Under the pieces are notes generated by a model. It made no database searches and was not told the DNA's origin. It worked only from the letters and a program-made list of their open reading frames with translations. A stretch of 27,226 nucleotides of DNA, from NCBI GenBank assembly GCA_021160245.1, contig JAGHCW010000050.1:1-27226 (forward strand), given 5' to 3'. Of the stretch, positions 5,888-25,145 are shown piece after piece (the first letter of the stretch is position 1; each line of letters begins with the position of its first letter). This stretch comes from a bacterium (GTDB lineage Bacteria > B130-G9). A program made the translations under genes and the position numbers.

Positions 5888-6041
5888 AGGCTATCTAATA
5901 AGTCTGTAACTGGTGTAGATGGCACGGGATAGTGCGGCGGGACATACTACATGTAGGAGCAGGCCTTGTGTCTGCTCCAATATATAGAGGGCGACAAGCT
6001 CCACCTCTGCAGATCCCCAGAGTCGACTTATTACACAGCAT
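5888..6041 (+). mobile_element. MITE-like element, copy 1
   Basis: This is a 154-bp element. Its left end AGGCTATCTAATAAGTC and right end GACTTATTACACAGCAT are inverted repeats (14 of 17 matches). The core GGAGCAGGCCTTGTGTCTG leads into AATATATAGAG and is alignable along its whole length with copy 2 at 12633. There is no open reading frame. It lies between divergent promoters and could affect either transcript. Confidence 0.75.
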
Positions 6042-6132
6042 CTAGCACCCAGGCTACCATTCTTCAGCCCAGTCAGGATTGCAGTCTGATTACAAACAGC
6101 AGGTGCCTGTGCAAATCAATTTTCATCTGCTT

Positions 6133-6160
6133 TTGACTAAGCGACGGAACATGATACTTT
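6133..6160 (+). promoter_or_regulatory. Putative extended -10 promoter of wecB
   Basis: TTGACT (6133-6138), a 16-nt spacer, then TGATACTTT, an extended -10 form (TG-N-TACTTT). The -10 box ends 6 nt before the wecB ATG. The gene has no clear Shine-Dalgarno sequence, so a leaderless transcript is possible. The -10 hexamer itself is weak (3 of 6). Confidence 0.35.
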
Positions 6161-6166
6161 CTGCAA

Positions 6167-7279
6167 ATGGCGAATCGAAAAAAAATACTCGTTGCTCTTG
6201 GGACTCGACCTGAGGCGATTAAGCTCGCGCCGGTTGTACTTGGGCTTCGAGAGTCCGGGAGCAGCTTTGAGTGTATCGTTTGCGGCACGGCGCAGCATCG
6301 CGAGATGCTTGACCAGGTCCTTTCGGTATTCGGTATTGAGCTCGATTTTGATCTCAGACTGATGACACCGGACCAGGCGCCGGCGGACGTCATCTCTCGC
6401 GGGCTGCCGCTTCTTATGGATGCTATCCGCGAATCAAGCCCGCGCCTCGTGATGGTTCAGGGGGATACGGTTAGCACATTCGCATCGGCATACGCGGCGT
6501 TCCTGAGCAAGGTCCCGGTCGCGCATGTAGAGGCCGGGCTTCGGACGCTGGACAAGTACCATCCATTCCCGGAGGAGCAGAATCGCCGGCTGACAAGCAC
6601 GATCTGCGACTACCATTTTGCGCCAACTGAGCGGGCGAGGCAGAATCTCCTTGTGGAGGGCGTTGACGATCGACGGATACTTGTTACGGGCAATACTGTG
6701 GTTGATGCTCTCAACCTGATGCTTTCAAGAGAGAACAAATCGGAGAGGTCGCCCGTTGCCGAGTCTCAGGGGAGGCTCATACTCGTTACCGTGCATCGCC
6801 GGGAGAGCTTCGGTGAGCCGATGAAGAGGATATGCTCCGTGTTGCGACGGATTTCTCTGGAGCATCCCGAATGCAGCATTGTATTCCCGGTTCATCCGAA
6901 TCCAAATGTCCAGTCGGTCGTTCGAGGCACTTTGTCCGGGCTACCAAATGTTGCCCTGCTTGCGCCATTGCCTTACGATGAGTTCATACTGCTTATGAAA
7001 CGAGCCTATTTAATAATTACCGACTCGGGAGGTATTCAGGAGGAGGCGCCATCTCTTGGCAAGCCGGTTCTTATTTTGCGCGATAAGACGGAGCGACCGG
7101 AGGGCATTGAGACTGGCTTGGCGGTTCTTGTTGGCTCCGCGCCCGACAGGATATATGATGTCTTCAGCAGAATGCTGAATGATCAGCCCTATTATATGAG
7201 CCTTGCCGTACATGAAAATCCTTACGGGGATGGTCTGGCCTCGAAGAGGATAGTTGATTTTTTGACTGAACAGATATAG
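6167..7279 (+). CDS. wecB: UDP-N-acetylglucosamine 2-epimerase, non-hydrolysing
   Basis: This 370-residue protein of the GT-B-like epimerase family interconverts UDP-GlcNAc and UDP-ManNAc in the cytoplasm, feeding ManNAc-type sugars into surface polysaccharide. Visible motifs are GTRPEAIKLAP (12-22), QHREM (43-47), QGDT with D100, HVEAGLRT with E122, FPEEQNR with E136, TVHRRES (about 207-213, catalytic His region) and SDSGGIQEEAP near 285. These match the acid/base residues known in E. coli WecB. The length is normal and full. It is followed after 50 bp by an O-antigen ligase gene, which fits a polysaccharide locus. The ATG is preceded by no good ribosome binding site (see the promoter at 6133). 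Confidence 0.95.
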   Translation: MANRKKILVALGTRPEAIKLAPVVLGLRESGSSFECIVCGTAQHREMLDQVLSVFGIELDFDLRLMTPDQAPADVISRGLPLLMDAIRESSPRLVMVQGDTVSTFASAYAAFLSKVPVAHVEAGLRTLDKYHPFPEEQNRRLTSTICDYHFAPTERARQNLLVEGVDDRRILVTGNTVVDALNLMLSRENKSERSPVAESQGRLILVTVHRRESFGEPMKRICSVLRRISLEHPECSIVFPVHPNPNVQSVVRGTLSGLPNVALLAPLPYDEFILLMKRAYLIITDSGGIQEEAPSLGKPVLILRDKTERPEGIETGLAVLVGSAPDRIYDVFSRMLNDQPYYMSLAVHENPYGDGLASKRIVDFLTEQI

Positions 7280-7329
7280 AAGAGCACTTGTGGAGAAGGA
7301 GCTAGAACACAACTCAGTTCTTTGGGAAG

Positions 7330-8784
7330 ATGAAAGTTAACGAAGACAGCGTAGAAGAAACGATGCTCTCGCGGTTATATGACCGGCTGCTGTTCGGGAT
7401 GTTTATCTCGATGCTCGTGGTGACGCCGTTTGTTTATCAGAAGAACATGGACGCGAGCGTGGCATTTCGGCGGCCCAAAGAGACGGCCTTCCAGGTGCTC
7501 TGCATCCTGATTATCGGGACGTTTCTTATGAGGTACATTGAGCGGGGATCGTTTTCGGCCTTGACGAGGCTCAAGAGTCTCCGAGGTTGGGTTAATCTTC
7601 TAAAAAGCACGCCTTTCACAGCCCCCGTTGTGATGATATGCATTGCCTGTCTGCTCTCCTTGATGAACGTGGCCAGCAGTTTTTACTTCTGGGACACGGC
7701 AGTGGGGGTGTTCGGCGCCGCCTTTGTGTGCTTCATTTTGTCGGACGTCCTGAAGCGTAACTACAAGCGACTCTTTGCATCTGTCAGCTTCATCAGCATA
7801 GCTGGAAGCTTTATGGGCGGCTATTGCATGCTTCAATACTACAGCCTCGACCCACTCTTTGTGCCCAGAAAGGAGGCCTATGTTGGGCGAACCGTCTCTT
7901 CGGGCTTCATCGACAATCCAAATACCGTCTCAGGCTATCTCGTGGCCATCTTACCCATCGTCTTGAGCATGTTCTTTGTTGCCAAACACAAGGCGACCAA
8001 GATAGCCGCGCTTATTGGCTCAGTCCTGATATTCGGCGGCTTGCTCTCAGCGTGCACACGAGGCGCTTTGATCGCGGGGGTCTTCGCGCTTTCGGTTTTT
8101 CTTGCATTGGTTTTTTTGAAGAGCAGATATACGAAAGCAGAAAAGCGCATCATAGCGATTGGCAGTCTAATCATTATCGTCTTTATTACCTTCTATGTCT
8201 GGATCAACCCGTTTATCTACGACCGGATAGCGAATACTAAAAGCGTCTTGAACCTTCGGAAAAACACTCGGTATATTGAGTGGGCGTCCGGAAAGCGGAT
8301 GATGCAGGACCATTTCCTCGTTGGCGTTGGCCTCGGCAATTACAAGTACTATTATCTTGATTACCGAGGCGATGCGGCTCATGAGACGGAGTTCATTGGT
8401 CGCTGGGAGAAGGCCAATCAGGCGCACAATGAGTTCGTTCAGGTTGGTGCGGAGCTTGGTTTTTTTGGCCTATTCGCGATGTTCTGGATTCTCGGCTCGT
8501 TTTCATGGCTCATCTTCCGGAAGGTATCCAGCATCAAGCGTCATTTGCCTGATCTCTCGCAGCGGGATTTACAGCTAGAGCAGCGTCGCGCCAATATGCT
8601 CAATGGTTTCTTGGGTTCTTTGCTGGGTCTGGCCGGGCATTGCGCGTTCATGTTCCCACTGCATATTGTCCCATCAGCGGTTGTCGGTGTCTTCGTAATC
8701 GGAATGTCCTTTGCTCTTGTCAGGATGCCTAGGGATTGCCTCGTCCTTGCAGGGCCGCCTCAGCAAGGGAGGGGGCGCAAGTGA
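7330..8784 (+). CDS. O-antigen ligase/polymerase, Wzy_C family
   Basis: This 484-residue inner-membrane protein has about 11 hydrophobic segments. The family features are a periplasmic loop containing GVGLGNYKYYYLDYRG and QAHNEFVQVGAELGFFGL (about 362-380), matching the HNEF/L...AELG signature of Wzy_C (O-antigen ligase, WaaL/Wzy/PglL-like), and an earlier SGFIDNPNTVSGYL and SACTRGALIAG region. These enzymes transfer or polymerise lipid-linked glycans on the periplasmic face. Whether this one ligates to lipid A core, polymerises, or acts on protein cannot be told from sequence. The start at 7330 has only a weak site; the ATG at 7363 is an alternative. The stop overlaps the GTG of the next gene (GTGA), so the two are coupled. 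Confidence 0.88.
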   Translation: MKVNEDSVEETMLSRLYDRLLFGMFISMLVVTPFVYQKNMDASVAFRRPKETAFQVLCILIIGTFLMRYIERGSFSALTRLKSLRGWVNLLKSTPFTAPVVMICIACLLSLMNVASSFYFWDTAVGVFGAAFVCFILSDVLKRNYKRLFASVSFISIAGSFMGGYCMLQYYSLDPLFVPRKEAYVGRTVSSGFIDNPNTVSGYLVAILPIVLSMFFVAKHKATKIAALIGSVLIFGGLLSACTRGALIAGVFALSVFLALVFLKSRYTKAEKRIIAIGSLIIIVFITFYVWINPFIYDRIANTKSVLNLRKNTRYIEWASGKRMMQDHFLVGVGLGNYKYYYLDYRGDAAHETEFIGRWEKANQAHNEFVQVGAELGFFGLFAMFWILGSFSWLIFRKVSSIKRHLPDLSQRDLQLEQRRANMLNGFLGSLLGLAGHCAFMFPLHIVPSAVVGVFVIGMSFALVRMPRDCLVLAGPPQQGRGRK

Positions 8785-10334
8785 GAAGGGCTATTCAGAT
8801 TGGCATAGCCATCGCGGTAGTCTATTTCTGCTTCTCCACGATGCGTCCTTTTCTTGCGCAAATAAGCCTTGAGATGGGCAAGGGATGGATGAACCAGTCC
8901 ACAAAGACTGCCCAAGCCGCCGGCAAGAACTCCGCAAGGGTTGCAAGTGCTCTGCGCGGACTGAAGATGGCCGATGGATTTTTCCGGGCGGCTATAAACC
9001 TTACTCCCAGTGACGGTCAAGTGAGGCTCTTCCTTGTCTATGCCACAAATCTGATTGTCGATATCGACAAGTCAATGTCCCTGGAGCGGCGTAACGCGAC
9101 GCATAAGAGGGTCATAGCCCTGGCAAACAATGCGATGGCCTTCTATGTCGATAACATAATCACTTGGGCAAGGGGAATGGCCAATCTGAGGTTGGGCAAC
9201 GTCCTTATAGCCATCGAAGACTTTGAGACCGCGCTGCACTATTACTCCACCTGGTCACAAGCGAGGCGGGCGATTGTGGGTTCATATCTGCAACAGCTGA
9301 CGCGGAATTACCAACGGGCTCCCAAAGTGCTGGTCCAGCGGCTCGAGATGCTGGTTCATAGGTTTCCGGAGAGTCGGGAAGCCGTCGAGAGTCTGGGCAA
9401 GGTCTATCTAAATCAGAAGCGGTATCAGGACGCGAGGGAGTGCTTTCTGCGCGCTGGCAATCCAAGCAGATTGACGCCAGACCTCGGGCTATTGGTGGCG
9501 CGGACCTACATATACGAGCGGGACAGCACAAGAGCTCTATGGGAGCTGTGCCGTATTCTCGCATACTCAACCCCAAAAACAGCTAAATCCATGACCCAAG
9601 TTGCCAAGACAGTCGCACTGCGCCTGAAGAGAGCCCCCAAGAATGCCGATGCTCAATATCTTTTCGGCGTCTTCCAGCAGGACAAGATGTCCGACTACAA
9701 TGTTGCGAAGCAGTATTATATCAACGCTTTTCGCAACCGGATGACCTACTACTTCCCGGCGAAGAGGTTGGCCGGCGTTTGCAAACGTCTGGGTCAGGAG
9801 GATGAAGCTTCATCTTGGCGGAAGGCGTCCGAGCGATTGCTGGGAGTCCTCCCGAAGCTGCGGCTAATAACTCCATCGGGCATAAAAACCGCGCATTGCC
9901 TCTTCGTTCGTGAAGCGGAGTCGCTCTCGCCTATATTCGGCAAGACCGTGCAGGATAGCGATGCATCCGGCGGCAAGGCTGTCCTTTTTAGCCAGAAGGA
10001 TGGCAGGTCTCAGCCGATCAGATTCGACTGCGCCGCTCTCCCTGCAGGAGACTATGAGCTCAGCTTCCGCATCAAGATACCAGAGCTTGTGAAGTCCCCC
10101 AGGGCGCCGCTCATAAAACTGAACGCTGATGGAGAGGGCGTTAGGTGCAGGAAAATGGGAAACACATCTAATTCATACGTGCTCGCAAAAGAGGTGAGGC
10201 GCGCGGGCGTCTATTGGGACTTTGTCTATAGCGTCAGTCATCCTGGCCTCATGCCTTATCAGATCACAGTCGATTTCTGGGCCAAGAGCGACATCTATCT
10301 GGACCGAATAGCGATGGCGATCAAGGCCGACTGA
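8781..10334 (+). CDS. Membrane-anchored TPR protein with C-terminal carbohydrate-binding-like domain
   Basis: From GTG at 8781, with GGGAGGGGG just upstream and overlapping the ligase stop, the protein has 517 residues. Residues about 3-24 form a signal anchor. Residues about 45-365 are helical with TPR-like units (for example DAQYLFGVFQQDK and NQKRYQDARECFLRAGNPS), so this part is a periplasmic protein-interaction scaffold. From about residue 370 the pattern changes to strands: REAESLSPIFGKTVQDSDAS, GGKAVLF, LPAGDYELSFRIKIP and ending DIYLDRIAMAIKAD. This resembles the jelly-roll CBM6/35-like fold (an EAE start and ASGGKAV are typical there). TPR proteins next to Wzy_C ligases are common. 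The fused sugar-binding-like end suggests a role in handling the glycan, which is inference. Confidence 0.75.
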   Translation: MRRAIQIGIAIAVVYFCFSTMRPFLAQISLEMGKGWMNQSTKTAQAAGKNSARVASALRGLKMADGFFRAAINLTPSDGQVRLFLVYATNLIVDIDKSMSLERRNATHKRVIALANNAMAFYVDNIITWARGMANLRLGNVLIAIEDFETALHYYSTWSQARRAIVGSYLQQLTRNYQRAPKVLVQRLEMLVHRFPESREAVESLGKVYLNQKRYQDARECFLRAGNPSRLTPDLGLLVARTYIYERDSTRALWELCRILAYSTPKTAKSMTQVAKTVALRLKRAPKNADAQYLFGVFQQDKMSDYNVAKQYYINAFRNRMTYYFPAKRLAGVCKRLGQEDEASSWRKASERLLGVLPKLRLITPSGIKTAHCLFVREAESLSPIFGKTVQDSDASGGKAVLFSQKDGRSQPIRFDCAALPAGDYELSFRIKIPELVKSPRAPLIKLNADGEGVRCRKMGNTSNSYVLAKEVRRAGVYWDFVYSVSHPGLMPYQITVDFWAKSDIYLDRIAMAIKAD

Positions 10335-10366
10335 GCGCCTCAACGTTGATATGAGGAGATAATGCG

Positions 10367-11023
10367 ATGAAGATCAAGTGGTTGGGCCATGCGGCCTTTG
10401 AGATTACGGCAGATGATGGCGCGTCAATTCTCACCGACCCCTATAGGCCGGGCGCCTTCGACGGGGCAATTGGATATGATCCCATAACCGAGCGGTTCGA
10501 CATCGTGACCGTCAGCCACAAACACGCCGACCACGACGGGGTAGATGGCCTCCCTGGAAGCCCGACGATACTCGACCAGGCGGGCAAGACATCGGCAAAT
10601 GGCATTGCAATCGAGGGCATCAATTCGTTCCACGATAAAACTGGCGGCTCGCAGCGGGGTGGCAACATCATATTCTGCTTCAAGGTTGACGGCATAAAGG
10701 TCTGTCATCTAGGCGATTTGGGCCACTTCCCAGACGAGGCCACAATGGCGAAGCTGTCGGATGTCGATATTCTATTGATACCCGTTGGGGGCACTTTCAC
10801 CATAGACGCGGCCGAGGCAAGCGCAATCGTGGCGCAGATTGGTCCGAAGCTGGCTATCCCAATGCACTTTAAGACTCCCAAGGTCGGTTTTGATATTGCA
10901 GGCGTTGACGCCTTCACCGCCGGAAAAAGCGACGTTGAGATTGCAGTCTCCGCAGAGGTCGAGTTCGACCTCGGCAGCCTTCCCGCAAAGACGAAGATCG
11001 TGGTTCTTAAACACGCAAAATAG
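10367..11023 (+). CDS. UPF0173-type metal-dependent hydrolase, MBL fold
   Basis: This 218-residue metallo-beta-lactamase-fold protein starts MKIKWLGHAAFEI (GHAxF is the first-strand signature of the UPF0173/YtkL group). The metal site SHKHADHDG (about 48-56, HxHxDH) follows, then HLGDLGH with the bridging Asp and IPMHFKTP with the last histidine. It would bind two metal ions, probably in the cytoplasm as there is no signal peptide. The substrate is unknown for the family; some relatives are called L-ascorbate-6-phosphate lactonase-like. GAGGAG lies 7-12 nt upstream. It lies 32 bp after the TPR gene and could be transcribed with it, but there is no functional link to polysaccharide that I can see. 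Confidence 0.9.
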   Translation: MKIKWLGHAAFEITADDGASILTDPYRPGAFDGAIGYDPITERFDIVTVSHKHADHDGVDGLPGSPTILDQAGKTSANGIAIEGINSFHDKTGGSQRGGNIIFCFKVDGIKVCHLGDLGHFPDEATMAKLSDVDILLIPVGGTFTIDAAEASAIVAQIGPKLAIPMHFKTPKVGFDIAGVDAFTAGKSDVEIAVSAEVEFDLGSLPAKTKIVVLKHAK

Positions 11024-11025
11024 GG

Positions 11026-11043
11026 TTGATCGGCTTCGATCAA
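11026..11043. terminator. Hairpin between convergent genes
   Basis: TTGATCG, GCTT loop, CGATCAA: a perfect 7-bp stem between the UPF0173 stop and the trmFO stop (it includes the trmFO stop codon). The position suits a bidirectional terminator, but neither side has a convincing T-tract. Confidence 0.35.
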
Positions 11044-12371: not shown

Positions 12372-12378
12372 GCCCGAA

Positions 12379-12383
12379 CCTCC
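12379..12383 (-). promoter_or_regulatory. Ribosome binding site that sets the trmFO start
   Basis: GGAGG on the minus strand, 7 nt before TTG at 12371. It lies downstream of the longer possible start at 12419, so it supports the shorter protein. Confidence 0.65.
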
Positions 12384-12409
12384 AGCCCCTCCGCTTCGCG
12401 TATAAACTT

Positions 12410-12426
12410 CAGTAATCAATTGATTA
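12410..12426. promoter_or_regulatory. Palindrome upstream of trmFO
   Basis: TAATCAATTGATTA (12413-12426) is a perfect 14-bp palindrome about 40-55 nt upstream of the trmFO start. Its half AATTGATTACTG occurs again at the same distance upstream of ispG (26523-26512). It could be an operator or part of a promoter region; the function is unproven. Confidence 0.3.
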
Positions 12427-12632
12427 GGGTCAGATTAACACGTCCAACCAGTCAGACAAAACTGCTGAACAACATGCTGTCGAACACACCTATATAACAA
12501 CCCATATCGTGCTTCAGCATGTTTAGATGAACACATTTGCTCGTCGGCCGGAGGTTATGAGTACGGCAGGAGCCGGTCTGTATAGCGCCCGTTGGGTGAC
12601 TGTGGATTGCGGCACACGGCCACGACACTAAT

Positions 12633-12789
12633 AGGCTGTCTAATAAGTCGGTTTTCGACGGAGATGACACGCTACAGAGCAACGGGATATACTATATGCA
12701 GGGGCAGGCCTTGTGTCTGCCCAAATATATAGATGGGCGGAGATACGCCCGCCCCTACAGGACCCCAGATTCGACTCATCAGACAGCCT
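12633..12789 (+). mobile_element. MITE-like element, copy 2 (best preserved)
   Basis: This is a 157-bp element with terminal inverted repeats AGGCTGTCTAATAAGTCG (left) and CGACTCATCAGACAGCCT (right), 16 of 18 matching. The core is palindromic: CAGGGGCAGGCCTTGTGTCT, then AAATATATAGAT, then GGGCGG and CGCCCGCCCCTACAG. It has no coding capacity. The right end abuts the remnant of an RHS/YD-repeat gene. No target-site duplication is obvious. The ends resemble those of DDE-transposase insertion sequences (the GAGGCTGTCT-type ends common in IS5/IS1182-like elements), so it may be mobilised in trans; that is inference. Confidence 0.8.
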
Positions 12790-12945
12790 CTCCGAATACT
12801 GCCACTTAGTATCACCCGACTCCGTGTCCCTCATCTTCGTGAGCCTCCCCCCAGCATCGTATTCGAACGCCAGATCATCGCCGCCTCGTAAGCCAGCGGA
12901 ATATCCTTCGGCCGCCAACGGCGGACAGCCTTTTCTGTCGTGAAC
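12790..12945 (-). pseudogene. RHS/YD-repeat protein remnant
   Basis: The minus strand encodes GDDLAFEYDAGGRLTKMRDT followed by ESGDTKWQY, one clear YD repeat (YDxxGRLTxxxDxxG) as found in RHS and wall-associated toxin proteins. The frame then runs straight into the MITE-like element at 12789, where homology ends. Upstream (about 12945-13080) the other minus frame reads SAGTNPRAFVNKF and DELWFTTEKAVRRW before stops, perhaps more of the same decayed gene. There is no start, no complete domain and no toxin domain, so this is a fossil fragment. Confidence 0.6.
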
Positions 12946-13407: not shown

Positions 13408-16400
13408 TTACGGAGCGTACGGAAGAGCATCATTCCCTGGGAAGACAAGAGTCCCCTCCGGCCCCCTAGGGCCAGGTCTGCTCTTATGGCTTGTGAAAAC
13501 CGGGTCTGGACGCACATAAGGGCCATCGTGTCTGCCAGATTTTGGATCACATGCCCAGCCACCAAAAGCATCCTCAAAGTAGAAGTAGAAGATGTGGCTC
13601 ATCCACCATAGCCTCGTCTGGAACACGTAGGTCCCGTTATCGGGAGTGCCGCTCTGCAAGACCATATTTTGGCCCGCCTTGTCGTCGATGAAAACCTGCT
13701 TCACGGTTGGTACGAGCCCGTCCGGATGATAGTAATGCACGGTATATGTGAATACGGTCTCTATCTTGCCGCAAATGGGATCAACTCCACCGTCGGAAAG
13801 CACGGGCAAGCTACTGGCGGACACATTCGGACCGTGCAATTCGCCCTCTTCGGGCTCTCTATCGCTTTCGCCGCAGCCGTCCTCGCAATAGAAGTGGAAG
13901 GTGTGTTCGCCGACTGGAAGCCCCATCTGGTAGATATAAGTCCCGTTAGCAGCGTCGCCGTCTTTCAGCATCATCTGACGTCCACCCGAGCCGTCAATAT
14001 GGACCCTAAGAAGCGATGGAGGATGGCCCTCCCGGTCAAAATAGTGGACAGAATAGGTGAACAACGTCTGAAGAGTGCCATTCCCGGGCCGGACACATCC
14101 ATCAGAGAGCACCGGGGCCCGATTCTCGTAATCTGTCCCCTCTGTGTAGTGATAGCCGACATCCGCGATGCCTCGATCGCAGACGCCGTCCGTTCTTGTC
14201 GTCAACTCATCAAGCCCAAGGTTGGCCGCCGTGTCGCTACCTGCGTTGACACACGGGCTGTTGATGCCCTGTCCAGCCGCTCTTTGACAAAGGTAGTAGT
14301 TTGCAACGAAGAGAGGATTCGCAGAGAAATTGCCCCCAAAGCCCTCGCAATCTGCATCCTCGATGTCGCAGTGGCGTATCTGGGAGCAGGCGACATTCCA
14401 AAGGTCGTCGTCATTTCCCCACAGGATGCACTCTGAAAGCTCGGGGAATGAACCTGCATCTGCAAACACGCCCTTATCCCAGTTGCTCTCGATTGTGCAG
14501 CTGAGCATGTCTGGCGAGGAACTCGCCGAGCAGCAGATGCCGCCTACCATGCCGGACGGGGGCGCCTGGTTTCCAGTGATGAGGCAGTTGAAGATGACCG
14601 GGGACGCCTGCGAATGGCACAGGACGGCGCCTCCATATTTTGCCTCGTTGTCGCGGATGATGCAGTCCTCGAGCAACATATCTGGCCCGATTGCGAACGC
14701 CTCGCCGGTGCAGTAGATACCACCCCCATACCCGTCGGTTGAATTGCCGGATATTGTGCATTCAACGATCGCCGGCTCACATGGGCCTTTCACATAGAAT
14801 CCGCCTCCGAATTCCTTCGCGGAGTTGCGCTCTATGAGGCAGCGCTCGAATACTGGATTGAACTCGCCGGAGCAATAGACCGCTCCGCCGCGTATTAGGG
14901 CCGAATTGTCGCTCAGAACACAGCCTCTGATGATGCTCGAACTTGTGAATGACATTGCGCCACCCTGATGCGAGAAGTTGTCCACTATCTCGCAGTCCTC
15001 AATGAGCATCTCACACGATGAGCTGCAATAGATGCCCCCACCCTTGATTCCGTCTTGGCCTGATGTGTCGGCAACGTTTGAGCCGATTCTCGTCCCGGTC
15101 AACGTGAGAGACCCTGAAAAAGCGCATACTCCGCCGCCGCTGTTTGCGCCGGTATTCCGCTCAATCTGGCAGTTCTCAAATACCGAGTAGCCGCTGTTTT
15201 GATAGACGCCGGCGCCGTAGAAGCAGCTGTTGGGGTCGTCAAGCAGTTTGTTGCCCGATATGGACGTGTTGATCACGGTTGGGGACGAATGGCGAAATAC
15301 TGTGAGCCCGCCCCCGCACTCCTCCGCCTCGTTATTGTCCATCGAGCAGTCTTCTATATGAGCGTCCGAGTTCGTCATCAGGAAGACGCCGCCGGCGAAT
15401 TTAAACGCGTAGTTATCGTCCATTGAGCAGTTTCTAATGAATGGGGAACATTGATCAAAACAGGCAACTGCTCCGCCTCTCCGGCCCTTGTTGTGCTCCA
15501 TTGTGCAGTTCTCAATGGTCGGACTCGAATCGATGAGGCAGCAGATCGCCCCGCCACCCCAGCCGGCCCAGGCGGTCTCATTGTGAGCAAAATAACAATC
15601 CTCTATTACAGGTGAGGACCGAACGCAACAGATGCCGGCTCCAGCGCCGTTCGGTTCATCACCACCGTACTGGTATGCTGTGCACGTGTTGTTGATGATT
15701 GTGCAATCGCTGATCAGGGCGTCTGATGCGCTGCAGCTTATGCCGCCGCCGAACCTCGACGCCTCGTTGTTCTCGATCGTGCAGTCTCTTACTATTGGTG
15801 AGCAGTCATCGTAAATCCTGATGCCACCTCCGGATTTCGACTTGTTCCCCTCGATGATGCAGTCCTCGATTGTCGGAGAGCTGTTGTCCCCGATCGCTAT
15901 GCCCCCACCAGCAGCAGCGTTTCTAAGAGCCACGTTGCCCCGTACGGTCGTCCCGCGAATTGTGGGAGAGCAGTTGTCGGCGATGTAGATTCCGCCGCCT
16001 TTGACGGCGTTTGAGTTATTTTCCACAACACAGTCTATGATCTTGGGGGAGGAGCCATGACCGATGTACACACCTCCCGCTGACCACACCTGGCTGCCGT
16101 TGGTGATGACGTTGCCTGAAATCGACGTGTCAATGACGGTTGGGCATCCAGCCTCCCATACGCAGAGGCCGCCGCCGGCTTCCCGCGCCTCGTTGCTGTC
16201 TATCTTGCAGTTTTCGATAAGAGGGGAGTAGCCGTCGAAACTGAAGCACCAAACGCCCCCACCATACTTGTATGACTCGTTATTCTCGATTCGGCAGTTG
16301 GTTATGCTCGCGGGGCTCTCGTGGAGACATATTCCACCTCCTCTGCGCCCCTTGTTATCGGTTATCACGCAGTTGTCTATGATTGTCTCCGCATCCCAGC

Positions 16401-17013
16401 CGCAGAATATCGCCCCGCCTCCCCAACCATATAAGCAGGTCTCGTTATGCGTGAAAGTGCTGTCATGTATGTTCAGCGAGGAATGTTTGCTGTAGATGCC
16501 AGCTCCGCTGCCCTCGGTGTCAAACATATACTGCGTGCCCGCTGAGCGGTTCCGGGTGATCCAGCATTCGGCAATCTCGAGCTTTGCCTCGTCGCAATAG
16601 ATGCCTCCACCGTGGCTATGTCGCCCGCTCCTGACCTGAAGCCCCTCAAGCCTCGATTGAGAAACATGCAAGAACTCGAAGACCCGCTGGCTGTCATCGC
16701 CCCACACAAGCGTGCTCTCCATGCTCGCACCCAGTATCGCATCATAGCTCTTAGGACGAATAGGGAAGACCTCGCCCAGGTTCGCATCATAAGTCCCTGC
16801 CGCGACGTGGATAATGACCGGGTCAGCAGCAGTCCCGGTTGTGTAATCGAGCGCGAACGTGATCGTCTGCCAGGGATCATCTGCGCTTGTGCCGCTGTTG
16901 TAGTTGTCCCCATTCTCATCTACAAAGTAGTGCTGCTCTGCGAACGCCGGGGCGATTAGCAATGCCCAGAGAGATACGCATAGCAGAATTAGGCCAAGAA
17001 GATGTTGCTTCAT
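13408..17013 (-). CDS. Secreted right-handed beta-helix repeat protein with two C-terminal beta domains
   Basis: This 1201-residue exported protein has a signal peptide at 1-25 (MKQH..., hydrophobic core, cleavage after PAFA). Residues 27-60 (YFVDENGDNYNSGTSADDPW then QTITFAL) are the DUF1565-type entry of parallel beta-helix proteins. Residues about 95-950 are dozens of rungs with the pattern GGGI.C....P.I.NC.I..N, that is, a pectate-lyase-like solenoid. A block at about 155-347 is repeated at about 443-635. Residues 966-1068 and 1069-1170 are two copies of one beta-rich domain starting PVLSDG, containing FTYxVHY, V.IDG, NGTY and F.FYxED. No PEP-CTERM, LPXTG or clear type-IX sorting tail is visible. 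It may be an extracellular or cell-surface carbohydrate-binding or degrading protein; no catalytic residues can be assigned. A possible sigma-54 promoter lies about 83 nt upstream. Confidence 0.88.
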   Translation of the reverse strand: MKQHLLGLILLCVSLWALLIAPAFAEQHYFVDENGDNYNSGTSADDPWQTITFALDYTTGTAADPVIIHVAAGTYDANLGEVFPIRPKSYDAILGASMESTLVWGDDSQRVFEFLHVSQSRLEGLQVRSGRHSHGGGIYCDEAKLEIAECWITRNRSAGTQYMFDTEGSGAGIYSKHSSLNIHDSTFTHNETCLYGWGGGAIFCGWDAETIIDNCVITDNKGRRGGGICLHESPASITNCRIENNESYKYGGGVWCFSFDGYSPLIENCKIDSNEAREAGGGLCVWEAGCPTVIDTSISGNVITNGSQVWSAGGVYIGHGSSPKIIDCVVENNSNAVKGGGIYIADNCSPTIRGTTVRGNVALRNAAAGGGIAIGDNSSPTIEDCIIEGNKSKSGGGIRIYDDCSPIVRDCTIENNEASRFGGGISCSASDALISDCTIINNTCTAYQYGGDEPNGAGAGICCVRSSPVIEDCYFAHNETAWAGWGGGAICCLIDSSPTIENCTMEHNKGRRGGAVACFDQCSPFIRNCSMDDNYAFKFAGGVFLMTNSDAHIEDCSMDNNEAEECGGGLTVFRHSSPTVINTSISGNKLLDDPNSCFYGAGVYQNSGYSVFENCQIERNTGANSGGGVCAFSGSLTLTGTRIGSNVADTSGQDGIKGGGIYCSSSCEMLIEDCEIVDNFSHQGGAMSFTSSSIIRGCVLSDNSALIRGGAVYCSGEFNPVFERCLIERNSAKEFGGGFYVKGPCEPAIVECTISGNSTDGYGGGIYCTGEAFAIGPDMLLEDCIIRDNEAKYGGAVLCHSQASPVIFNCLITGNQAPPSGMVGGICCSASSSPDMLSCTIESNWDKGVFADAGSFPELSECILWGNDDDLWNVACSQIRHCDIEDADCEGFGGNFSANPLFVANYYLCQRAAGQGINSPCVNAGSDTAANLGLDELTTRTDGVCDRGIADVGYHYTEGTDYENRAPVLSDGCVRPGNGTLQTLFTYSVHYFDREGHPPSLLRVHIDGSGGRQMMLKDGDAANGTYIYQMGLPVGEHTFHFYCEDGCGESDREPEEGELHGPNVSASSLPVLSDGGVDPICGKIETVFTYTVHYYHPDGLVPTVKQVFIDDKAGQNMVLQSGTPDNGTYVFQTRLWWMSHIFYFYFEDAFGGWACDPKSGRHDGPYVRPDPVFTSHKSRPGPRGPEGTLVFPGNDALPYAP

Positions 17014-17209: not shown

Positions 17210-17347
17210 GTGGATCAATTTAGAGCCACCCCGTCTGGAAATGGAGGCCACTCGTGGTTCCTATTAGCCTTCTATAGGCCGATTCGCTGGATGGATCAAT
17301 TTAGAGCCACCCCATACCACCGCACGGGTGGTCACGAATTGATCCAC
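17210..17347. repeat. Insertion-sequence-end-like repeats
   Basis: TGGATCAATTTAGAGCCACC followed by CC occurs twice in direct orientation (17211-17232 and 17292-17313, 81 bp apart). A shortened inverted copy, AATTGATCCAC, lies at 17337-17347. Multiple end repeats of this sort are typical of some insertion sequences, for example the IS21 family. No transposase is present, so this is probably an IS relic or a solo end. Confidence 0.55.
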
Positions 17348-17359
17348 ACATTATTCGGG

Positions 17360-17455
17360 AGGCTGTCTAAAATAAGCTACACTTTCCGTTTTGTAGGAGA
17401 GGGATTTGTCCCCGCTCATCTATATATTTGGGCAGATATGAGACCTGCCCCTACA
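17360..17455 (-). repeat. MITE-like element, copy 3 (truncated)
   Basis: It begins AGGCTGTCTAAAATAAG and carries the core in reverse orientation to copies 1 and 2 (ATCTATATATTTGGGCAG, then ACCTGCCCCTACA). The second terminal repeat is not found, so the copy is truncated or diverged. It lies between the IS-end repeats and the CapD-like gene. Within 17014-17564 nothing else is recognised apart from this, the IS-end repeats and the possible promoter at 17096. Confidence 0.65.
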
Positions 17456-17564
17456 TCTTGTCCGCCCAAGATATTGCCCGCCAGCTAAAGCGACACCGAT
17501 GATCTTCCGATACACTAGGTGGTGATCACTGTAAAGTTGTCTCTAATCGAGTAGGGGAGTCGGA

Positions 17565-19496: not shown

Positions 19497-20162
19497 CTCG
19501 GGCAATGAATGAGGCTTCTGGGATTCGCTCTTTCCCTCAAAGAATGCCTCGAACGGGGACCATGAATAGTAGATCATGAACGCCTTGCCTTTGAGCAGCT
19601 TTTCATCAAGCGTGCCCCAATATCTGGAGTCCAGGCTATTGTCGCGGTTGTCGCCCATCATGAAGTAGCAATTGTCCGGGACATCGATTGGACCGAAAAA
19701 GTCCCTTTTATCTCGTTGCCTGGGAATCACCCAGGGACTTAGATGTTGCTCCCAATCGTAAACCGCTTCCTCGCCATTTATGGAAAGTCGTTTGGCTACT
19801 TGCTCTATTTTATCCCCAGGCAGACCAACCATCCGCTTGATATAGTCCAATTTCATATTGGTGGGATTCTTGAAAACCGGGATGTCGAACCGCTCTGGAG
19901 CGCGAACCGGGAGTATCTTGGCAAGTGGGCCCAGTCCGTCCGTCTCATAGATCATCCGATTCACCAAGATGTGATCACCTCGCAGAAGGGTGCTCTCCAT
20001 CGAGCCGGTGGGTATCTTAAACGCCTGAACAACGAATGTTCTGAGAAAAAAGGCAAGGAGTATCGCTATCGCCATAACCTCGACGTATTCTATCAATCGC
20101 TTGGCCACTGGTCCCATCAATTCGCCCCGGGTAATGACTTTGGCGCCTTTGTCTTTTCTCAA
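19425..20162 (-). CDS. lepB: Signal peptidase I
   Basis: This 245-residue S26-family protease cleaves signal peptides at the outer face of the inner membrane. One N-terminal membrane helix (about 24-42) is followed by box B IPTGSMESTLLRGD with catalytic Ser54, box D DYIKRMVGLPGDKIE with catalytic Lys109, and box E MGDNRDNSLDSRYWG. It ends NERLRVSRLLNIIR, close to the normal family C-terminus, so the end is real even though it overlaps the convergent sugar-dehydratase gene by 72 bp. The start TTG at 20162 has AAGGGA upstream; ATG at 20117 is a weaker alternative. It lies 105 bp downstream of mtaB on the same strand. It would process the secreted proteins of this window. Confidence 0.95.
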   Translation of the reverse strand: MRKDKGAKVITRGELMGPVAKRLIEYVEVMAIAILLAFFLRTFVVQAFKIPTGSMESTLLRGDHILVNRMIYETDGLGPLAKILPVRAPERFDIPVFKNPTNMKLDYIKRMVGLPGDKIEQVAKRLSINGEEAVYDWEQHLSPWVIPRQRDKRDFFGPIDVPDNCYFMMGDNRDNSLDSRYWGTLDEKLLKGKAFMIYYSWSPFEAFFEGKSESQKPHSLPELIWFNITHINERLRVSRLLNIIR

Positions 20163-20267
20163 ATCATGGTCCCTTCATTTGGAGAACCGCATCGGTCATA
20201 GTTCATCGAATAGCCGCCAGCAATGCTAGAGGCTCAAAAGAGAAACACCCGATCTGCAATAATAGTT

Positions 20268-21599
20268 TCAATATGGCACTGATGTCCGCTCGCCCATTGC
20301 CAGCTCACCTGAGAATGAGGTCAGTTCAACGTCGATGATCTGCCCTGCAAACAACGCGTCCGCATCGACAAGGACATTGATGTAATTGTCCGAAAGCGAG
20401 AGACGACGGCCTGATTTTTCGTCAATCTTCTTCAACACAAGCACATCGAGCTTGGAGCCGACTTCAGAGGTGCAAAAAGCATGCCGCTTTGCGCTGCTAA
20501 TGCCTCTGAGTATCTTGCTGCGGCTCTTGATCTCCTCACTCGGAATCAGATCGCTGCTCCGGTATTTCTCGGCCGCCGGAGTGCCCGGACGAGTCGAATA
20601 CGAGAAAACGTGCAGATACGAAAGGTCGAGGTCTTGGATGAACTCAGATGTTAGCTCAAACTCACGACTAAACTCCGCGGGGAAGCCGACGATCACATCC
20701 GCTCCGATGCAGATGCCGGCGCGTCCTCTCTTAAGCCGCTTAATCAGGGCGGAGTAATCGGCTGTTGTATAGTCGCGATTCATGGCGCAGAGCACGGAAT
20801 CGCAGCCGCTTTGAAGCGGAATATGCAGATGCCGACATATCCGCGTTTCCGAGACGATAGCCTCAATCAACTCGTCGGTGAACTCCCTCGGCTCGATTGA
20901 ACTGAGCCGAACCCGCCTGACGCCGGTCTCATCGAGCATCCGTCGAAGCAAAGCGGCAAGGCTGAGCGCCTCGTTCAAGTCGCTTCCATAAGTCCCAAGG
21001 TGTGTGCCACATAGCACGATCTCTTGATAGCCCGCCTCAACCAGCCTCTGAACCTGCTCGATCACCCAATCCGGCTTCATACTCCGGTTAGGGCCTCTTG
21101 CTCTCGGAATTATGCAGTAAGCGCACTGGGAATCGCATCCCTCTTGGACCTTCACAAACGCCCTTGAATAGTCGAAGAACCGATCGATCATCGGCTCGTT
21201 GCCCGTGGAGTGTTGCTGATGTGGCGAGATTGACGAGACAACATCCCTGTCATTGCCGAGGCCTTTCAGGATTGCGGCAATGTCCATCTTATCCCTGTTG
21301 CCCAAAATGAGAGTAACGCCCGGAATCGAGGCGTACGTCTCACCTGCTACCTGGCAGCCGCAGCCCGCAACAACGATCGCGGCGCTTGCGTTCTTGCGCT
21401 GAGCCTTTCGGATAGCCGCCCTGCATCGGTGATCACCCTTGTGCGTCACGGTGCAGGTGTTGATGACGTATATGTCGGCTAGCTGATCAAAGCGAACGAC
21501 CTTGAAGCCGGCGTCTGCCAGCTGGCCGGCCATCTGGGCGCTCTCGAACTGGTTCAACTTGCAGCCCAGTGTGCAGAATGCAACAGATCTCGTATTCAA
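20268..21599 (-). CDS. mtaB: tRNA t6A37 methylthiotransferase MtaB
   Basis: This 443-residue radical-SAM enzyme of the MiaB/RimO family adds methylthio to t6A at tRNA position 37. The N-terminal UPF0004 domain has its three cluster cysteines (TLGCKLNQFES, NTCTVTHKGD, VAGCGCQV). The radical-SAM motif CDSQCAYC lies at about 155-162, with QEGCDSQCAYCIIPRARG as in MtaB (MiaB has a different following sequence). A C-terminal TRAM-like domain lies at about 375-440. In the third cysteine block a Cys (GCGC) replaces the usual aromatic or Ala of GC[YA]AQ, adding a cysteine next to the cluster ligand. The start is TTG at 21599 with only a weak ribosome binding site. Likely co-transcribed with lepB. Confidence 0.92.
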   Translation of the reverse strand: MNTRSVAFCTLGCKLNQFESAQMAGQLADAGFKVVRFDQLADIYVINTCTVTHKGDHRCRAAIRKAQRKNASAAIVVAGCGCQVAGETYASIPGVTLILGNRDKMDIAAILKGLGNDRDVVSSISPHQQHSTGNEPMIDRFFDYSRAFVKVQEGCDSQCAYCIIPRARGPNRSMKPDWVIEQVQRLVEAGYQEIVLCGTHLGTYGSDLNEALSLAALLRRMLDETGVRRVRLSSIEPREFTDELIEAIVSETRICRHLHIPLQSGCDSVLCAMNRDYTTADYSALIKRLKRGRAGICIGADVIVGFPAEFSREFELTSEFIQDLDLSYLHVFSYSTRPGTPAAEKYRSSDLIPSEEIKSRSKILRGISSAKRHAFCTSEVGSKLDVLVLKKIDEKSGRRLSLSDNYINVLVDADALFAGQIIDVELTSFSGELAMGERTSVPY

Positions 21600-21747
21600 A
21601 CTCTGTGTCCTAATTATGCGACGTTCAAAATAACAGGTTCCCGGTTTAATGCAAATGCGTCAAGACCGAAATCGCAAATATCACCTTGATCACTCCCGCT
21701 TCCACTCAACTGGGGTGTTCTTAGCGGCGGAAATCAGATTGGATCGG

Positions 21748-21780
21748 GTGTAGGACGGGCTTTCTGAGGCTGTCTCCGGC
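21748..21780 (+). repeat. Dispersed repeat (GTGTAGGACGGGCTTTC type), copy A
   Basis: GTGTAGGACGGGCTTTC is followed by a diverged GGCTGTC and CCGGC block. The same 17-mer occurs on the minus strand at 25371-25355 at the end of ispG, again followed by CTGTC and CCGGC. A 17-base identity is unlikely by chance here, so it is a small dispersed repeat. Confidence 0.6.
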
Positions 21781-21916
21781 GGGCGTGATCGCCGATCGGC
21801 AAGCTCCTTTGGATCCATAGGATCGGCGCTATTGAACTTAACAAGAAACCTGCGCATCCGATTTACTGGGACCAGGAATGGTCATCACGTCAAATAAGGC
21901 GAGATTCTGAGGCAAT

Positions 21917-21945
21917 TTGAGCATTTGTGGCAAAGTAGTTATATT
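21917..21945 (+). promoter_or_regulatory. Possible sigma-70 promoter
   Basis: TTGAGC (21917-21922), a 17-nt spacer, and TATATT (21940-21945; 5 of 6). It lies about 200 nt upstream of the 136-residue secreted-protein gene and would give a long 5' leader. The region is AT-rich, so a chance match is possible. Confidence 0.25.
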
Positions 21946-22152
21946 GAATAATAACTCATAAACATAATTGCTGAATAGATAAACGTAATTAAAGCTTTAC
22001 CTTTCCTATCGGAGCCCTAAACTCCCCGGATTAAATCAATTTCTATTCATGGATATATTCAAGACCGCGGAGAAAAGAGTGTCCGGGAGCACTTTAAGGA
22101 ATCTGATAATTAGAAACCAAACCAACATAATAAATGCAAAATAGAGGAGAAG

Positions 22153-22563
22153 ATGAGAAAATGTAACTTGAATTGGCATGTAGCCATCCTGGCAGTAATG
22201 CTGTTTGGCATACTCGGGACAACTCTGAGCGCCAACGCTCAATGCCTGAGCAACCCCGGCGTAACCGAAGTGAGCGCGTGGAACTACGAGTTCTCTGTAA
22301 CGGGATATCTTCCCAACATGCTGGACTACCCGAAGGTGTGGGTACGGGTACCTGGCTCCTTGCTCTGGAACTCGTACATGATGACGCTCTGGACACCGAT
22401 TAGCCCTGTCTATAAAGAGTTCTGGGTCGTTTTGGACTTCGAGCCGACCGGAGCCGGGACTTATGACTACAAGTTTGAAGCAAGCTGCGGCTGGCTACCT
22501 TCGACAGGAGAATGGCACTTGTCGGTTGACGAGGACGGGCACTGCGATTGGGGCTGCAACTAA
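22153..22563 (+). CDS. Small secreted single-domain protein, unknown function
   Basis: This 136-residue protein has a clear signal peptide (1-29, cleavage after SANA, before Q30). The mature part is a single beta-rich domain with four cysteines (C31, then ASCGW, GHCDW and GCN near the end), which suggests two disulfides outside the cytoplasm. The pattern YEFSV, KVWVRVPG, MMTLW, then GAGTYDYKFEASCG follows the same order as the two C-terminal repeats of the beta-helix protein (FTYSVHY, VHIDG, MMLKDG, GEHTFHFYCEDGCG). It may therefore be a stand-alone copy of that domain; this is judged by eye. GAGGAG lies 4-9 nt upstream of the ATG. A hairpin follows the stop, so it is probably transcribed alone. 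Confidence 0.7.
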   Translation: MRKCNLNWHVAILAVMLFGILGTTLSANAQCLSNPGVTEVSAWNYEFSVTGYLPNMLDYPKVWVRVPGSLLWNSYMMTLWTPISPVYKEFWVVLDFEPTGAGTYDYKFEASCGWLPSTGEWHLSVDEDGHCDWGCN

Positions 22564-22605
22564 GGTTGACTGACCGGCGCGGTTCCAGGCTGGCCGTCCC
22601 TGAGT

Positions 22606-22627
22606 AAGGCCCTCGCTCCCGGGCCTT
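22606..22627 (+). terminator. Hairpin after the small secreted-protein gene
   Basis: AAGGCCC, 8-nt loop, GGGCCTT: a perfect 7-bp GC-rich stem 43 bp after the stop. It is followed by TGAAATT rather than a clean T-run, so it is a weak or factor-assisted terminator. Confidence 0.45.
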
Positions 22628-22709
22628 TGAAATTACTTGACTTCGGATTCTCTATTTGGTTACAGCATTATACGTAACAGATAACCGGTTAACTTAAGGG
22701 AGGGGAGAA

Positions 22710-24932
22710 ATGAAGAATCGTCTTCTGCCGATCTTCATGGTTGTCTTGATTTTTGTGGCCTTCTCACAGGTCGGAAACGCTCAGACGTGGCACAGCTATC
22801 CCAAGGCGAATGGCCAGGGGCAGCTTGTAATCGAGGGTAACTATCTGTGGTCCGCCGGCGAGCTTCTGTATCGGTACGACATCTCTTCTGGGGCCTGGCG
22901 CATGTTCGGCCGCGATGATGGCTTGCCGGAGAATGCCCTGAACTGCATTGCCCTAGACTCTGGCGGCGCCAAGTGGATTGGGACCCAGGACAGGGGACTA
23001 TGGTCGTTCGACGGAAATGAGTTTCATCGACTCGATCTAGACATGCCATCCGCCCCGGAGTCGGTCTCGATCCTAATGACAGACCCAACCGACCGTATAT
23101 GGTTCGCTAAAAAATGGAGTGAGGGGCTGTGGGTCTCCGACGGCCTGATAACCCTCTGCCACGGCGAGTCATCCGGACTTATCGGCCGAGTGAAGTCGAT
23201 CACATGGGGGCCTGGTGATACTGCCTGGTGCACAACAAACAATAGCGTTTATCGTCTCGACGGCGACACCTGGACAGAGCTTAAGACCGCCGGTGACTAC
23301 TACTTTGACACTATCTTCGCCGATAGATCCGGGACGGTCTGGGTAACGCAGAGCATGGGGCCGATCCTCCGATACAATGGCGATACATGGACCTCCTGCT
23401 CAATTCCTGGAGCAGATTCGTTCAATCCATTCAGTGGCTTCTCCGAGGGACCTGATGGGACAATATGGTTGGCCAATTATAGGTGCCTCGCACGTTTTGA
23501 TGGCGCCGAATGGACGAGCTTCAAGGTAGGCGATGGCATGCCGTCAGAATGGCCCGACATCATAGATGTATCGAGCACGGCCGTGGATGACAACAACGTC
23601 TTATACGCATCGTGCAATCTTGGGATCATCAGCTACGACGGCCAACAGTGGTCCATTATTGGGCCTCTTAGCAACGTTCCGGTCAACAATCTCACCGCAG
23701 CTTCATGGGCCAACGACCGACTATTCTTTGGGACATGGGATAATGGGCTGGGCGAGTTCGATGGTCTCCAGTGGCGTATGGACCGGGACGATTCTGCCGG
23801 CTCAAATGCTCCGTTTGACGTCGTGCAATATGACCCCGAGCGCGACGTGACCTGGTATGGCGGCGAGAGGAGTGGCTTTGGCTGCTTTGGCCCGGGCGCC
23901 GGGGAGTACACTGGCGGCTCTGATGCTAACCGTCCGAAGTCCGGCAAATGTATGACGCTGGACCAGGACGGCAACGTGTGGGTAGGTTCAGGGAGCAATA
24001 TTCACAAATGGGATGGTTATACATGGACTAAGTACACAGATGAGGACGGTCTTCTGCCTGTCGAGAGCTTCACGGGCATTGCTGCTTCGCATGACGGTTC
24101 TATATGGGCTGTCGGCCGGTGCGTGCCAGCCTCGATGATAATGACGGCCAGCGTCTTTGATAACGGAACATGGACGGTCAAGACTTTTGATGATATTTCC
24201 GGACAGGCGGCCGACATCACATCTGACGCGCTTGGCGGCGTCTGGGGTTTGCTCCAGATGGTGGACATCGAAGGCAACTGCAAGGTGGTGAGGCTCTCAC
24301 TCGATGGCGTTCTTGCGGAATGGGACATGGCCGGGGGCGGCTGGGGACTGCAAAAGATATTCGTATCCCCTCAGGTGAACGGTATCTGGCTCGTGGGCGA
24401 ATACGGGGCCCTGCGTCTTTTTGACGACGAATGGCGACTTGTAACTCCGGCGGAAGGCCTAGCCTCTGGCTCTGTTTACAGCGTTGCATTTGCGCCGAAC
24501 AACGTGACCTGGTTCTGCACAGGAACCTCGCTCTGCAGGCTGGATGAAAGCCCAATCCCATGGGTCCGACTCTACGCGGCCGGTGGCACTGGCGGAACGC
24601 TTGATTTTAAGTCCGGGGACACGTTGGACGTTCAAGCCGAGCTCCATAATCCGATGACCGAGTGCTCGGTATCGATTTACGTAGCGGTTCGACTGCCAAA
24701 CGATCCCACGTTGTTCTTCTGGCCGTCGTTCTCAACCCAGCAGGAAGCGGCATTTACAGGAACGCTCTCCGACAAGATGTTCTTGGGGCCGCTCTCCCTA
24801 TTCACGCACACATTCTCAGGCCAAGAACCTCCGGGCACATACTCAATCTTCTCTGCCGTCTTCTCCAACGAAACTAGTGAGATGATCGGCGACATCCAGC
24901 AGGTGGACATAGACTTCACAGCCGGGCAATAG
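22710..24932 (+). CDS. Secreted beta-propeller protein (two-component-regulator propeller type)
   Basis: This 740-residue exported protein has a signal peptide at 1-24 (MKNRLLPIF..., cleavage after GNA). Residues about 26-620 are repeats of about 40-45 residues with the Reg_prop-like pattern DG.IW......L.RFDG..WT, for example GPDGTIWLANYRCLARFDG, GDTAWCTTNNSVYRLDGDTW, and GNVWVGSGSNIHKWDGYTW. Such repeats build one or two seven-bladed propellers, as in the sensor part of hybrid two-component systems. No kinase or membrane anchor follows here. From about residue 622 to the end there is a beta-sandwich-like domain (GDTLDVQAELHNPM to the terminal TAGQ). The role is unknown, probably ligand or glycan binding outside the cell. 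GGGAGGGGAG precedes the ATG. It lies 147 bp after the small secreted protein, with a hairpin between. Confidence 0.82.
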   Translation: MKNRLLPIFMVVLIFVAFSQVGNAQTWHSYPKANGQGQLVIEGNYLWSAGELLYRYDISSGAWRMFGRDDGLPENALNCIALDSGGAKWIGTQDRGLWSFDGNEFHRLDLDMPSAPESVSILMTDPTDRIWFAKKWSEGLWVSDGLITLCHGESSGLIGRVKSITWGPGDTAWCTTNNSVYRLDGDTWTELKTAGDYYFDTIFADRSGTVWVTQSMGPILRYNGDTWTSCSIPGADSFNPFSGFSEGPDGTIWLANYRCLARFDGAEWTSFKVGDGMPSEWPDIIDVSSTAVDDNNVLYASCNLGIISYDGQQWSIIGPLSNVPVNNLTAASWANDRLFFGTWDNGLGEFDGLQWRMDRDDSAGSNAPFDVVQYDPERDVTWYGGERSGFGCFGPGAGEYTGGSDANRPKSGKCMTLDQDGNVWVGSGSNIHKWDGYTWTKYTDEDGLLPVESFTGIAASHDGSIWAVGRCVPASMIMTASVFDNGTWTVKTFDDISGQAADITSDALGGVWGLLQMVDIEGNCKVVRLSLDGVLAEWDMAGGGWGLQKIFVSPQVNGIWLVGEYGALRLFDDEWRLVTPAEGLASGSVYSVAFAPNNVTWFCTGTSLCRLDESPIPWVRLYAAGGTGGTLDFKSGDTLDVQAELHNPMTECSVSIYVAVRLPNDPTLFFWPSFSTQQEAAFTGTLSDKMFLGPLSLFTHTFSGQEPPGTYSIFSAVFSNETSEMIGDIQQVDIDFTAGQ

Positions 24933-24991
24933 ACAACCCAAAACTGCGAGCATTCTCTGGGGTGTATTCCTCTGAATTCGGCGTGTTTTAG

Positions 24992-25145
24992 AGGCTGCCT
25001 GAAAGGTCGTATTTCTGTTTTGCAGGGGCGGGGCTTGTCTCCGCCCATCTATATATTCAGGCACTCACAAGGCGCCTCCACATATAGCATGTCCAGTTGC
25101 GCCTCGCATGCCGACTCCAACGAAAACCGACCTATTAGACAGGCT
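24992..25145 (-). mobile_element. MITE-like element, copy 4
   Basis: This is a 154-bp element with ends AGGCTGCCTGAAAGGTCG and CGACCTATTAGACAGGCT, inverted repeats with 14 of 18 matches. The core reads TGCAGGGGCGGGGCTTGTCT, then CCGCCCATCTATATATTC, so its ATCTATATAT part is in the opposite orientation to copies 1 and 2. The length matches copies 1 and 2 within 3 bp. It lies between the convergent propeller and ispG genes. Confidence 0.75.

What the first reader, a model, noticed from the sequence alone, without database searches (positions are those of the whole stretch)
5888..25145. Four copies of a MITE-like element of about 155 bp with palindromic cores
Copies at 5888-6041, 12633-12789 and 24992-25145 have matched lengths (154, 157 and 154 bp), imperfect 17-18 bp terminal inverted repeats of AGGCTGTCTAATAAGTCG type, and a shared core around AAATATATAGAT flanked by GGGGCAGG/GCCC palindromes. 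A fourth, truncated copy lies at 17360-17455. Copies 3 and 4 are inverted relative to 1 and 2. All lie outside intact genes. No transposase is encoded, so a full-length IS elsewhere in the genome would have to move them, or they are stabilised as RNA structures. Their number in 27 kb suggests a major repeat family in this genome.
Basis: partly seen in the sequence, partly recalled or inferred. Interest (0 to 1): 0.6.

Follow-up and report, generated by a model that had tools for sequence, protein, structure and literature searches.

The report
IS1182-type MITE carrying its own target
The window holds four copies of a short non-coding jumping element, repeated at 57 or more places in this bacterium's genome, that is most likely moved by a common family of transposase (IS1182) and that carries inside itself a palindrome of the kind such elements like to land in, so copies can nest inside copies.

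Summary
The element is a ~157-bp MITE with 18-19-bp terminal inverted repeats (GAGGCTGTCYAATAAGTCG), found at 57 or more places in the host genome and in two other genera of its family. It was not found in a fourth genome, of the same genus as one of the carriers. Direct repeats of 4-6 bp flank 8 of 26 copies (1.5 expected; 0 of 5,000 re-dealings reach 8). The RNA-structure alternative is not supported: no covariation.

In one relative a MITE sits inside the core of another MITE with an exact CTTG duplication, and the joined flanks restore the core with 1 mismatch in 64. So this MITE carries a target for its own kind. IS1182-type MITEs, REPINs and REP-targeting ISs are each known; I found no report of the combination. 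Transposition itself is inferred, not shown.

The parts
5887..6041 (+). MITE copy 1, full length, intergenic, upstream of a UDP-GlcNAc 2-epimerase gene (6167-7279)
12633..12789 (+). MITE copy 2, full length, best match to the family model (131.9 bits), intergenic
12633..12650 (+). left TIR of copy 2, AGGCTGTCTAATAAGTCG, no mismatch
12696..12759 (+). core of copy 2: REPIN (two inverted GTAG-type REPs around AAATATATAGAT)
12772..12789 (-). right TIR of copy 2, two mismatches to the left TIR
17360..17492 (-). MITE copy 3: core plus right end; left TIR not recognisable; between two divergent genes
24992..25145 (-). MITE copy 4, full length, between two convergent genes
24986..24990 (.). probable target duplication TTTTA, left of copy 4
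25146..25150 (.). probable target duplication TTTTA, right of copy 4

Best explanation
The repeats are a family of non-autonomous DNA transposons (MITEs) with IS1182-type ends. A DDE transposase of the IS1182 family, made by full-length ISs elsewhere in the genome, is inferred to bind GAGGCTGTCYAATAAGTCG at both ends, move the MITE, and join it into new DNA with a target duplication of about 4 bp. The tip of REP hairpins is a favoured landing site. The MITE's core is itself a REPIN (two inverted GTAG REPs, a kind of repeat thought to be spread by RAYT tyrosine transposases). Each new copy therefore brings in a REP loop that can serve as a further landing site, and MITEs nest inside MITEs. Shown: the family, the ends, the matching IS, the duplications, REP arms at many insertion points, and one exact nested insertion. 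Inferred: that an IS1182 transposase moves the MITE in trans, how the REPIN came to be inside, and that carrying a target helps the MITE spread.
For: Family of 57 or more places with shared ends. Complete IS1182 element with the same ends, C94:3903-5701. About 20 contig ends lie in a multicopy IS with the same tips. Direct repeats of 4-6 bp at 8 of 26 elements, null mean 1.5, 0 of 5,000 re-dealings reach 8. REP arms beside insertions: 9 of 17 IS contig-end flanks against 0.17% of random sites; 6 of 26 flanks in G000 against 0.05%; 7 of 26 in G001 against 1.9%. An intact copy of the palindrome found beside the IS ends, CCGCGTT-TC-AACGCGG. G002's IS1182 element sits in a REP with its 4-base loop TTCG duplicated. 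Core halves occur as free REPs in unrelated genomes and with other spacers in G002, and flank a RAYT gene in G002. Nested insertion in G002:C287 with CTTG duplication; empty core restored with 1 mismatch in 64; three more interruptions at the same point.
Against: Duplications are significant in G001 (6 of 13) but not in the host alone (2 of 13; 314 of 5,000 re-dealings as high). General palindromy of MITE flanks is weak. The C94 IS lies between mirror-image arms with no direct repeat, as in an IS1272-like replacement. The REP-arm patterns were chosen after seeing the flanks. The body of the multicopy IS is not in the assembly, so its family is not shown. G001 has MITEs but only IS1182 remnants.
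Confidence: 0.8

Rival explanations
1. An IS1182-type MITE that integrates by the inverted-repeat-replacing mode described for IS1272: the target palindrome is swapped for the element and no duplication is made.
For: IS1272, an IS1182-family member, replaces palindromes without duplications (PMC5678879). The C94 IS sits between two mirror-image REP arms without a direct repeat. 18 of 26 elements show no duplication.
Against: 8 of 26 elements have direct repeats, far above the null. The nested MITE in G002:C287 leaves the target palindrome complete apart from a CTTG duplication. G002's IS1182 duplicates the loop TTCG. Old copies may have lost their duplications.
Confidence: 0.1
2. A REPIN family spread by RAYT tyrosine transposases, the IS1182-like arms being passengers.
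For: The core is a GTAG REPIN and lies beside a RAYT gene in G002. The core is better conserved than the arms (0.876 against 0.72-0.76). Copies that are core-only or keep one end exist.
Against: Left TIRs are as well conserved as the core (0.902). Full-length copies end exactly at the TIRs and have duplications there. The host shows only a partial RAYT hit, next to a different REP.
Confidence: 0.05
3. A structured RNA or regulatory element kept by selection, not a transposon.
For: The consensus folds strongly (z -8.9), and all four window copies are intergenic.
Against: No covariation: 84.2% of cells paired against 84.0% in shuffles. Window copies fold weakly (z -1.5 to -2.7). No Rfam match. 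Copies lie in divergent, convergent and upstream positions alike.
Confidence: 0.04

Closest known systems
MITEPye1 of Paracoccus yeei (PMC11578231)
   Same: MITE with 18-bp TIRs like IS1182-family ends, flanked by direct repeats, mostly intergenic, folds into a long stem-loop, thought to be moved by IS1182 transposases.
   Different: 1-3 copies per chromosome there, at least 57 places here; no REPIN core or REP-loop targeting is mentioned in the passages read.
IS1272 and the IS1182 family (PMC5678879)
   Same: IS1182-family transposase; some members aim at palindromes.
   Different: IS1272 replaces the palindrome and makes no duplication; here duplications of about 4 bp are seen and the palindrome is kept in the clearest case. 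4-bp repeats are listed for the IS1182 member ISPse1 (PMC3281130).
REPINs and GTAG-type REPs with RAYT transposases (PMC3116915, PMC3733652)
   Same: The core has two inverted GTAG-tagged palindromes, and a RAYT gene in G002 is flanked by the same units.
   Different: Here the REPIN is enclosed in IS1182-type ends and copied with them.
REP-targeting insertion sequences (Tobes and Pareja 2006, PMC1525189)
   Same: Insertion into REP palindromes.
   Different: That survey names families IS3, IS110, IS4, IS256 and IS5, not IS1182; those ISs are not described there as carrying a REP target inside.

Membership tests
MITE | Short (about 70-300 bp), non-coding, repeated in the genome | tested here: met
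   ~157 bp; at least 57 places; no transposase inside
MITE | Terminal inverted repeats | tested here: met
   18-19 bp
MITE | Target-site duplications | tested here: met
   8 of 26 elements, 0 of 5,000 re-dealings as high over G000 and G001 together; weak in the host alone
MITE | Ends shared with an autonomous IS in the same genome | tested here: met
   C94 IS, ends within 2 mismatches of the MITE TIR
MITE | Moved in trans by that transposase | not testable with these tools
   needs an assay
IS1182 family (the C94 partner element) | Transposase matches the IS1182 model above its cut-off | tested here: met
   NF033551, 302.8 bits against 270
IS1182 family (the multicopy IS with ends A and B) | IS1182 transposase between the two ends | tested here: inconclusive
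   body not in the assembly; a sequence like end B lies on the same contig as an IS1182 remnant in G001
REPIN (the core) | Two REP palindromes in inverted orientation, GTAG-tagged | tested here: met
REPIN (the core) | Associated RAYT gene in the same genome | tested here: inconclusive
   met in G002 (80.4 bits against 80); only a partial RAYT beside another REP in the host
IS1272-type inverted-repeat replacement | No duplication, target palindrome removed | tested here: not met
   not met in the nested MITE and the G002 IS1182; the C94 IS is compatible with it
Structured RNA element | Covarying base pairs | tested here: not met
   no Rfam match

The most novel reading that the evidence does not exclude
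A self-targeting MITE: by carrying a REPIN whose hairpin loop is a landing site of its own transposase, the element spreads its own insertion sites, so that MITEs build up in nested stacks in intergenic places, with two unrelated transposases (IS1182 DDE and RAYT) acting on one composite repeat.
Probability: 0.4. Interest if true: 0.65.

Novelty: new variant of a known kind. Interest (0 to 1): 0.5.

Why it matters
MITEs, REPINs and REP-targeting insertion sequences are usually studied apart. This family joins all three in one 157-bp unit and shows nesting of one copy in another with an exact target duplication. It suggests a simple way in which non-coding repeats can multiply with little harm to genes (land in intergenic palindromes, and carry more of them), and it adds IS1182-type elements, with a duplicated hairpin loop, to those that aim at REPs. 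It also accounts for many of the breaks in this genome's assembly.

Tried and rejected
RNA element: rejected on covariation and folding. Palindromy of MITE flanks in general, by arm similarity or joint folding: weak and carried by a few clear cases. Naming the host: an exact core pattern and the IS transposase found nothing in named genomes. Exact core pattern in viral contigs, and copy 2 by BLAST in phages and plasmids: nothing. Empty sites in G003: the MITE is absent at two syntenic places, but one G003 locus holds a different repeat and the other a lysine-aminomutase-like gene (my reading of its translation), so neither is clean. Papers on the combination of MITE, REP and nested insertion: none held, in a library limited to open-licence papers.

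Full report
OBSERVATION. Copies 1, 2 and 4 are full length (154-157 bp); copy 3 is core plus right end and reaches 17492, not 17455. The TIR motif occurs 5 times in the window against 0.02 expected. In the host genome (G000, 3.43 Mb, 244 contigs; the window is contig C112) BLAST with copy 2 finds 40 matches. A sequence-only model built from 13 copies finds 90 matches, from which I count at least 57 distinct places after removing reverse-strand duplicates. These 13 copies are on average 74% identical (65-87%), so this is an old family rather than one recent burst.

ANATOMY. Consensus: TIR AGGCTGTCYAATAAGTCG, a left arm of about 45 bp, a 64-bp core TGTAGGGGCAGGCCTTGTGTCTGCCC-AAATATATAGAT-GGGCGGAGACAAGCCCCGCCCCTACA, a right arm of about 12 bp, and the inverted TIR. 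Conservation is highest in the left TIR (0.902) and the core (0.876), lower in the right TIR (0.786) and the arms (0.72-0.76). The base outside AGGCT is C read outward in 45 of 52 flanks, so the real tip is GAGGCTG.

THE PARTNER IS. A scan for the TIR led to a complete IS at C94:3903-5701 (1,799 bp). Its 493-aa transposase has DUF772 and DDE_Tnp_1_6 and passes the IS1182 equivalog cut-off (302.8 against 270). A broken relative lies on C173. Many contigs stop inside one of two sequences that begin with the same tip: end A (GAGGCTGTCCAATAAGTCGGGAGTAGG) and end B (GAGGCTGTCTAATAAGGCCTGATG), 21 matches in the genome, all at contig ends. I read these as the two ends of one IS of about ten copies that the assembler collapsed; its body is not in the assembly. 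In G001 a sequence 81% identical to end B lies on the same contig as an IS1182 transposase remnant. G002 has an intact IS1182 element, 54% identical in protein and also above the cut-off, with ends GAGGCTGTGCCATAA.

TARGET DUPLICATIONS. Of 26 elements with both ends, 8 have direct repeats of 4-6 bp at the boundary. Re-dealing left and right flanks gives 1.5 on average and never 8 in 5,000 trials. The signal is strong in G001 (6 of 13) and weak in the host alone (2 of 13). Copy 4 of the window has TTTTA on both sides.

WHERE THEY LAND. Outward flanks of the multicopy IS look alike: CTTCAACGCGGTGATATAG, CTGAAATATGGTGATTTGG and so on. An uninterrupted copy of this palindrome, CCGCGTT-TC-AACGCGG, is seen elsewhere in the genome (L017, L037). 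Thus the IS sits at the tip of that REP hairpin. REP arms stand beside 9 of 17 IS contig-end flanks against 0.17% of random sites; a second REP arm (CCTACGGCTA) beside 6 of 26 MITE/IS flanks in G000 against 0.05%; GTAG REP arms beside 7 of 26 flanks in G001 against 1.9%. The patterns were chosen after looking at the flanks, so the ratios are descriptive. The IS1182 of G002 lies in GGTGGGCT-TTCG / TTCG-AGCCCGCC: a REP stem with its 4-base loop duplicated. The C94 IS lies between two mirror-image arms about 40 bp long without a direct repeat, as IS1272 might leave it (PMC5678879). General tests of palindromy over all MITE flanks are weak, so loop targeting is established for the clear cases, not for every copy.

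THE CORE IS A REPIN. The half-core TGTAGGGGCRGGCCTTGTGTCTGCCC occurs alone or in other pairings in genomes of other families, and in G002 as pairs with quite different spacers (L213, L214). It carries the GTAG tag that defines a superfamily of REPs (PMC3733652). In G002:C3 a tyrosine transposase that just meets the cut-off of NCBIfam's REP-associated model (80.4 against 80) has a core upstream and a half-core downstream. The host itself shows only a partial RAYT hit, next to a different REP.

NESTING. In G002:C287 a 161-bp MITE interrupts the core of another MITE...TGTAGGGGCAGGCCTTG | GAGGCTGTAACATAAG...CTTATGTTACAGCCTC | CTTGTGTCTGCCC... Removing the insert and one CTTG restores the 64-bp core with one mismatch to the consensus. 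Three further places in G002 are interrupted at the same point (L100, L196, L216); L100 appears to be three elements deep (my reading). So the loop of the core's own REP is a real landing site for elements of this type.

RELATIVES. Only three other genomes of the family are held. Full-length MITEs at up to 84% identity to the consensus are in G001 (another genus), related ones in G002 (a third genus); G003, of the same genus as G001, has none. Orthologous DNA of G001 and G003 is about 86% identical at one locus, so copy number changes fast, unless the 83% completeness of G003 hides some. The nearest other genomes share only the domain. The host could not be named.

NOT AN RNA ELEMENT. Pairing in the consensus fold is the same in real and shuffled columns (84.2 and 84.0%), with no clear excess of compensatory changes. 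Rfam gives nothing. The palindrome of the consensus (z -8.9) has decayed in the window copies (z -1.5 to -2.7).

VERDICT. A known kind of element (IS1182-type MITE; MITEPye1 is a published example, PMC11578231) in an unusual form: it encloses a REPIN, lands in REP loops, and thereby carries a target for itself. Mobilisation in trans, and any advantage of carrying a target, are inferences that need an assay.

Noticed in passing
window 25147-25321 (best part 25243-25315): A different dispersed repeat abuts MITE copy 4; its best part is 95% identical to places in G001 and G003, while orthologous genes are only 66-71% identical.
   Followed up: partly
window 26546-26736: Another dispersed repeat with a large inverted repeat (arms 26558-26609 and 26687-26738), many copies in G003.
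   Followed up: no
L169:7525-7574 (G001:C34): A 50-bp repeat with about 35 matches at 92-94% in G003, many near contig ends.
   Followed up: no
G000 contig ends, e.g. C6, C17, C41, C121, C206, C239: About 20 contig ends lie in two recurring IS ends; the IS body is missing from the assembly.
   Followed up: partly
L011 and L012 (G000:C3 and C64): Two MITE copies share similar sequence on both flanks, so the MITE seems to lie inside, or to have been copied with, a larger repeat.
   Followed up: no
L013 and L022 (G000:C155 and C89): A second kind of left end, AGGCTGGGTCA, with the same core: probably a sister MITE subfamily.
   Followed up: no
window 13408-17013: A 1,201-aa right-handed beta-helix protein with Chlamydia-PMP-type repeats; internal DNA repeats there give many repeat hits.
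   Followed up: no
L192:1270-2360 (G001:C146): An IS200-like tyrosine transposase gene lies among at least four copies of another palindromic repeat, about 195 bp apart downstream of the gene.
   Followed up: no
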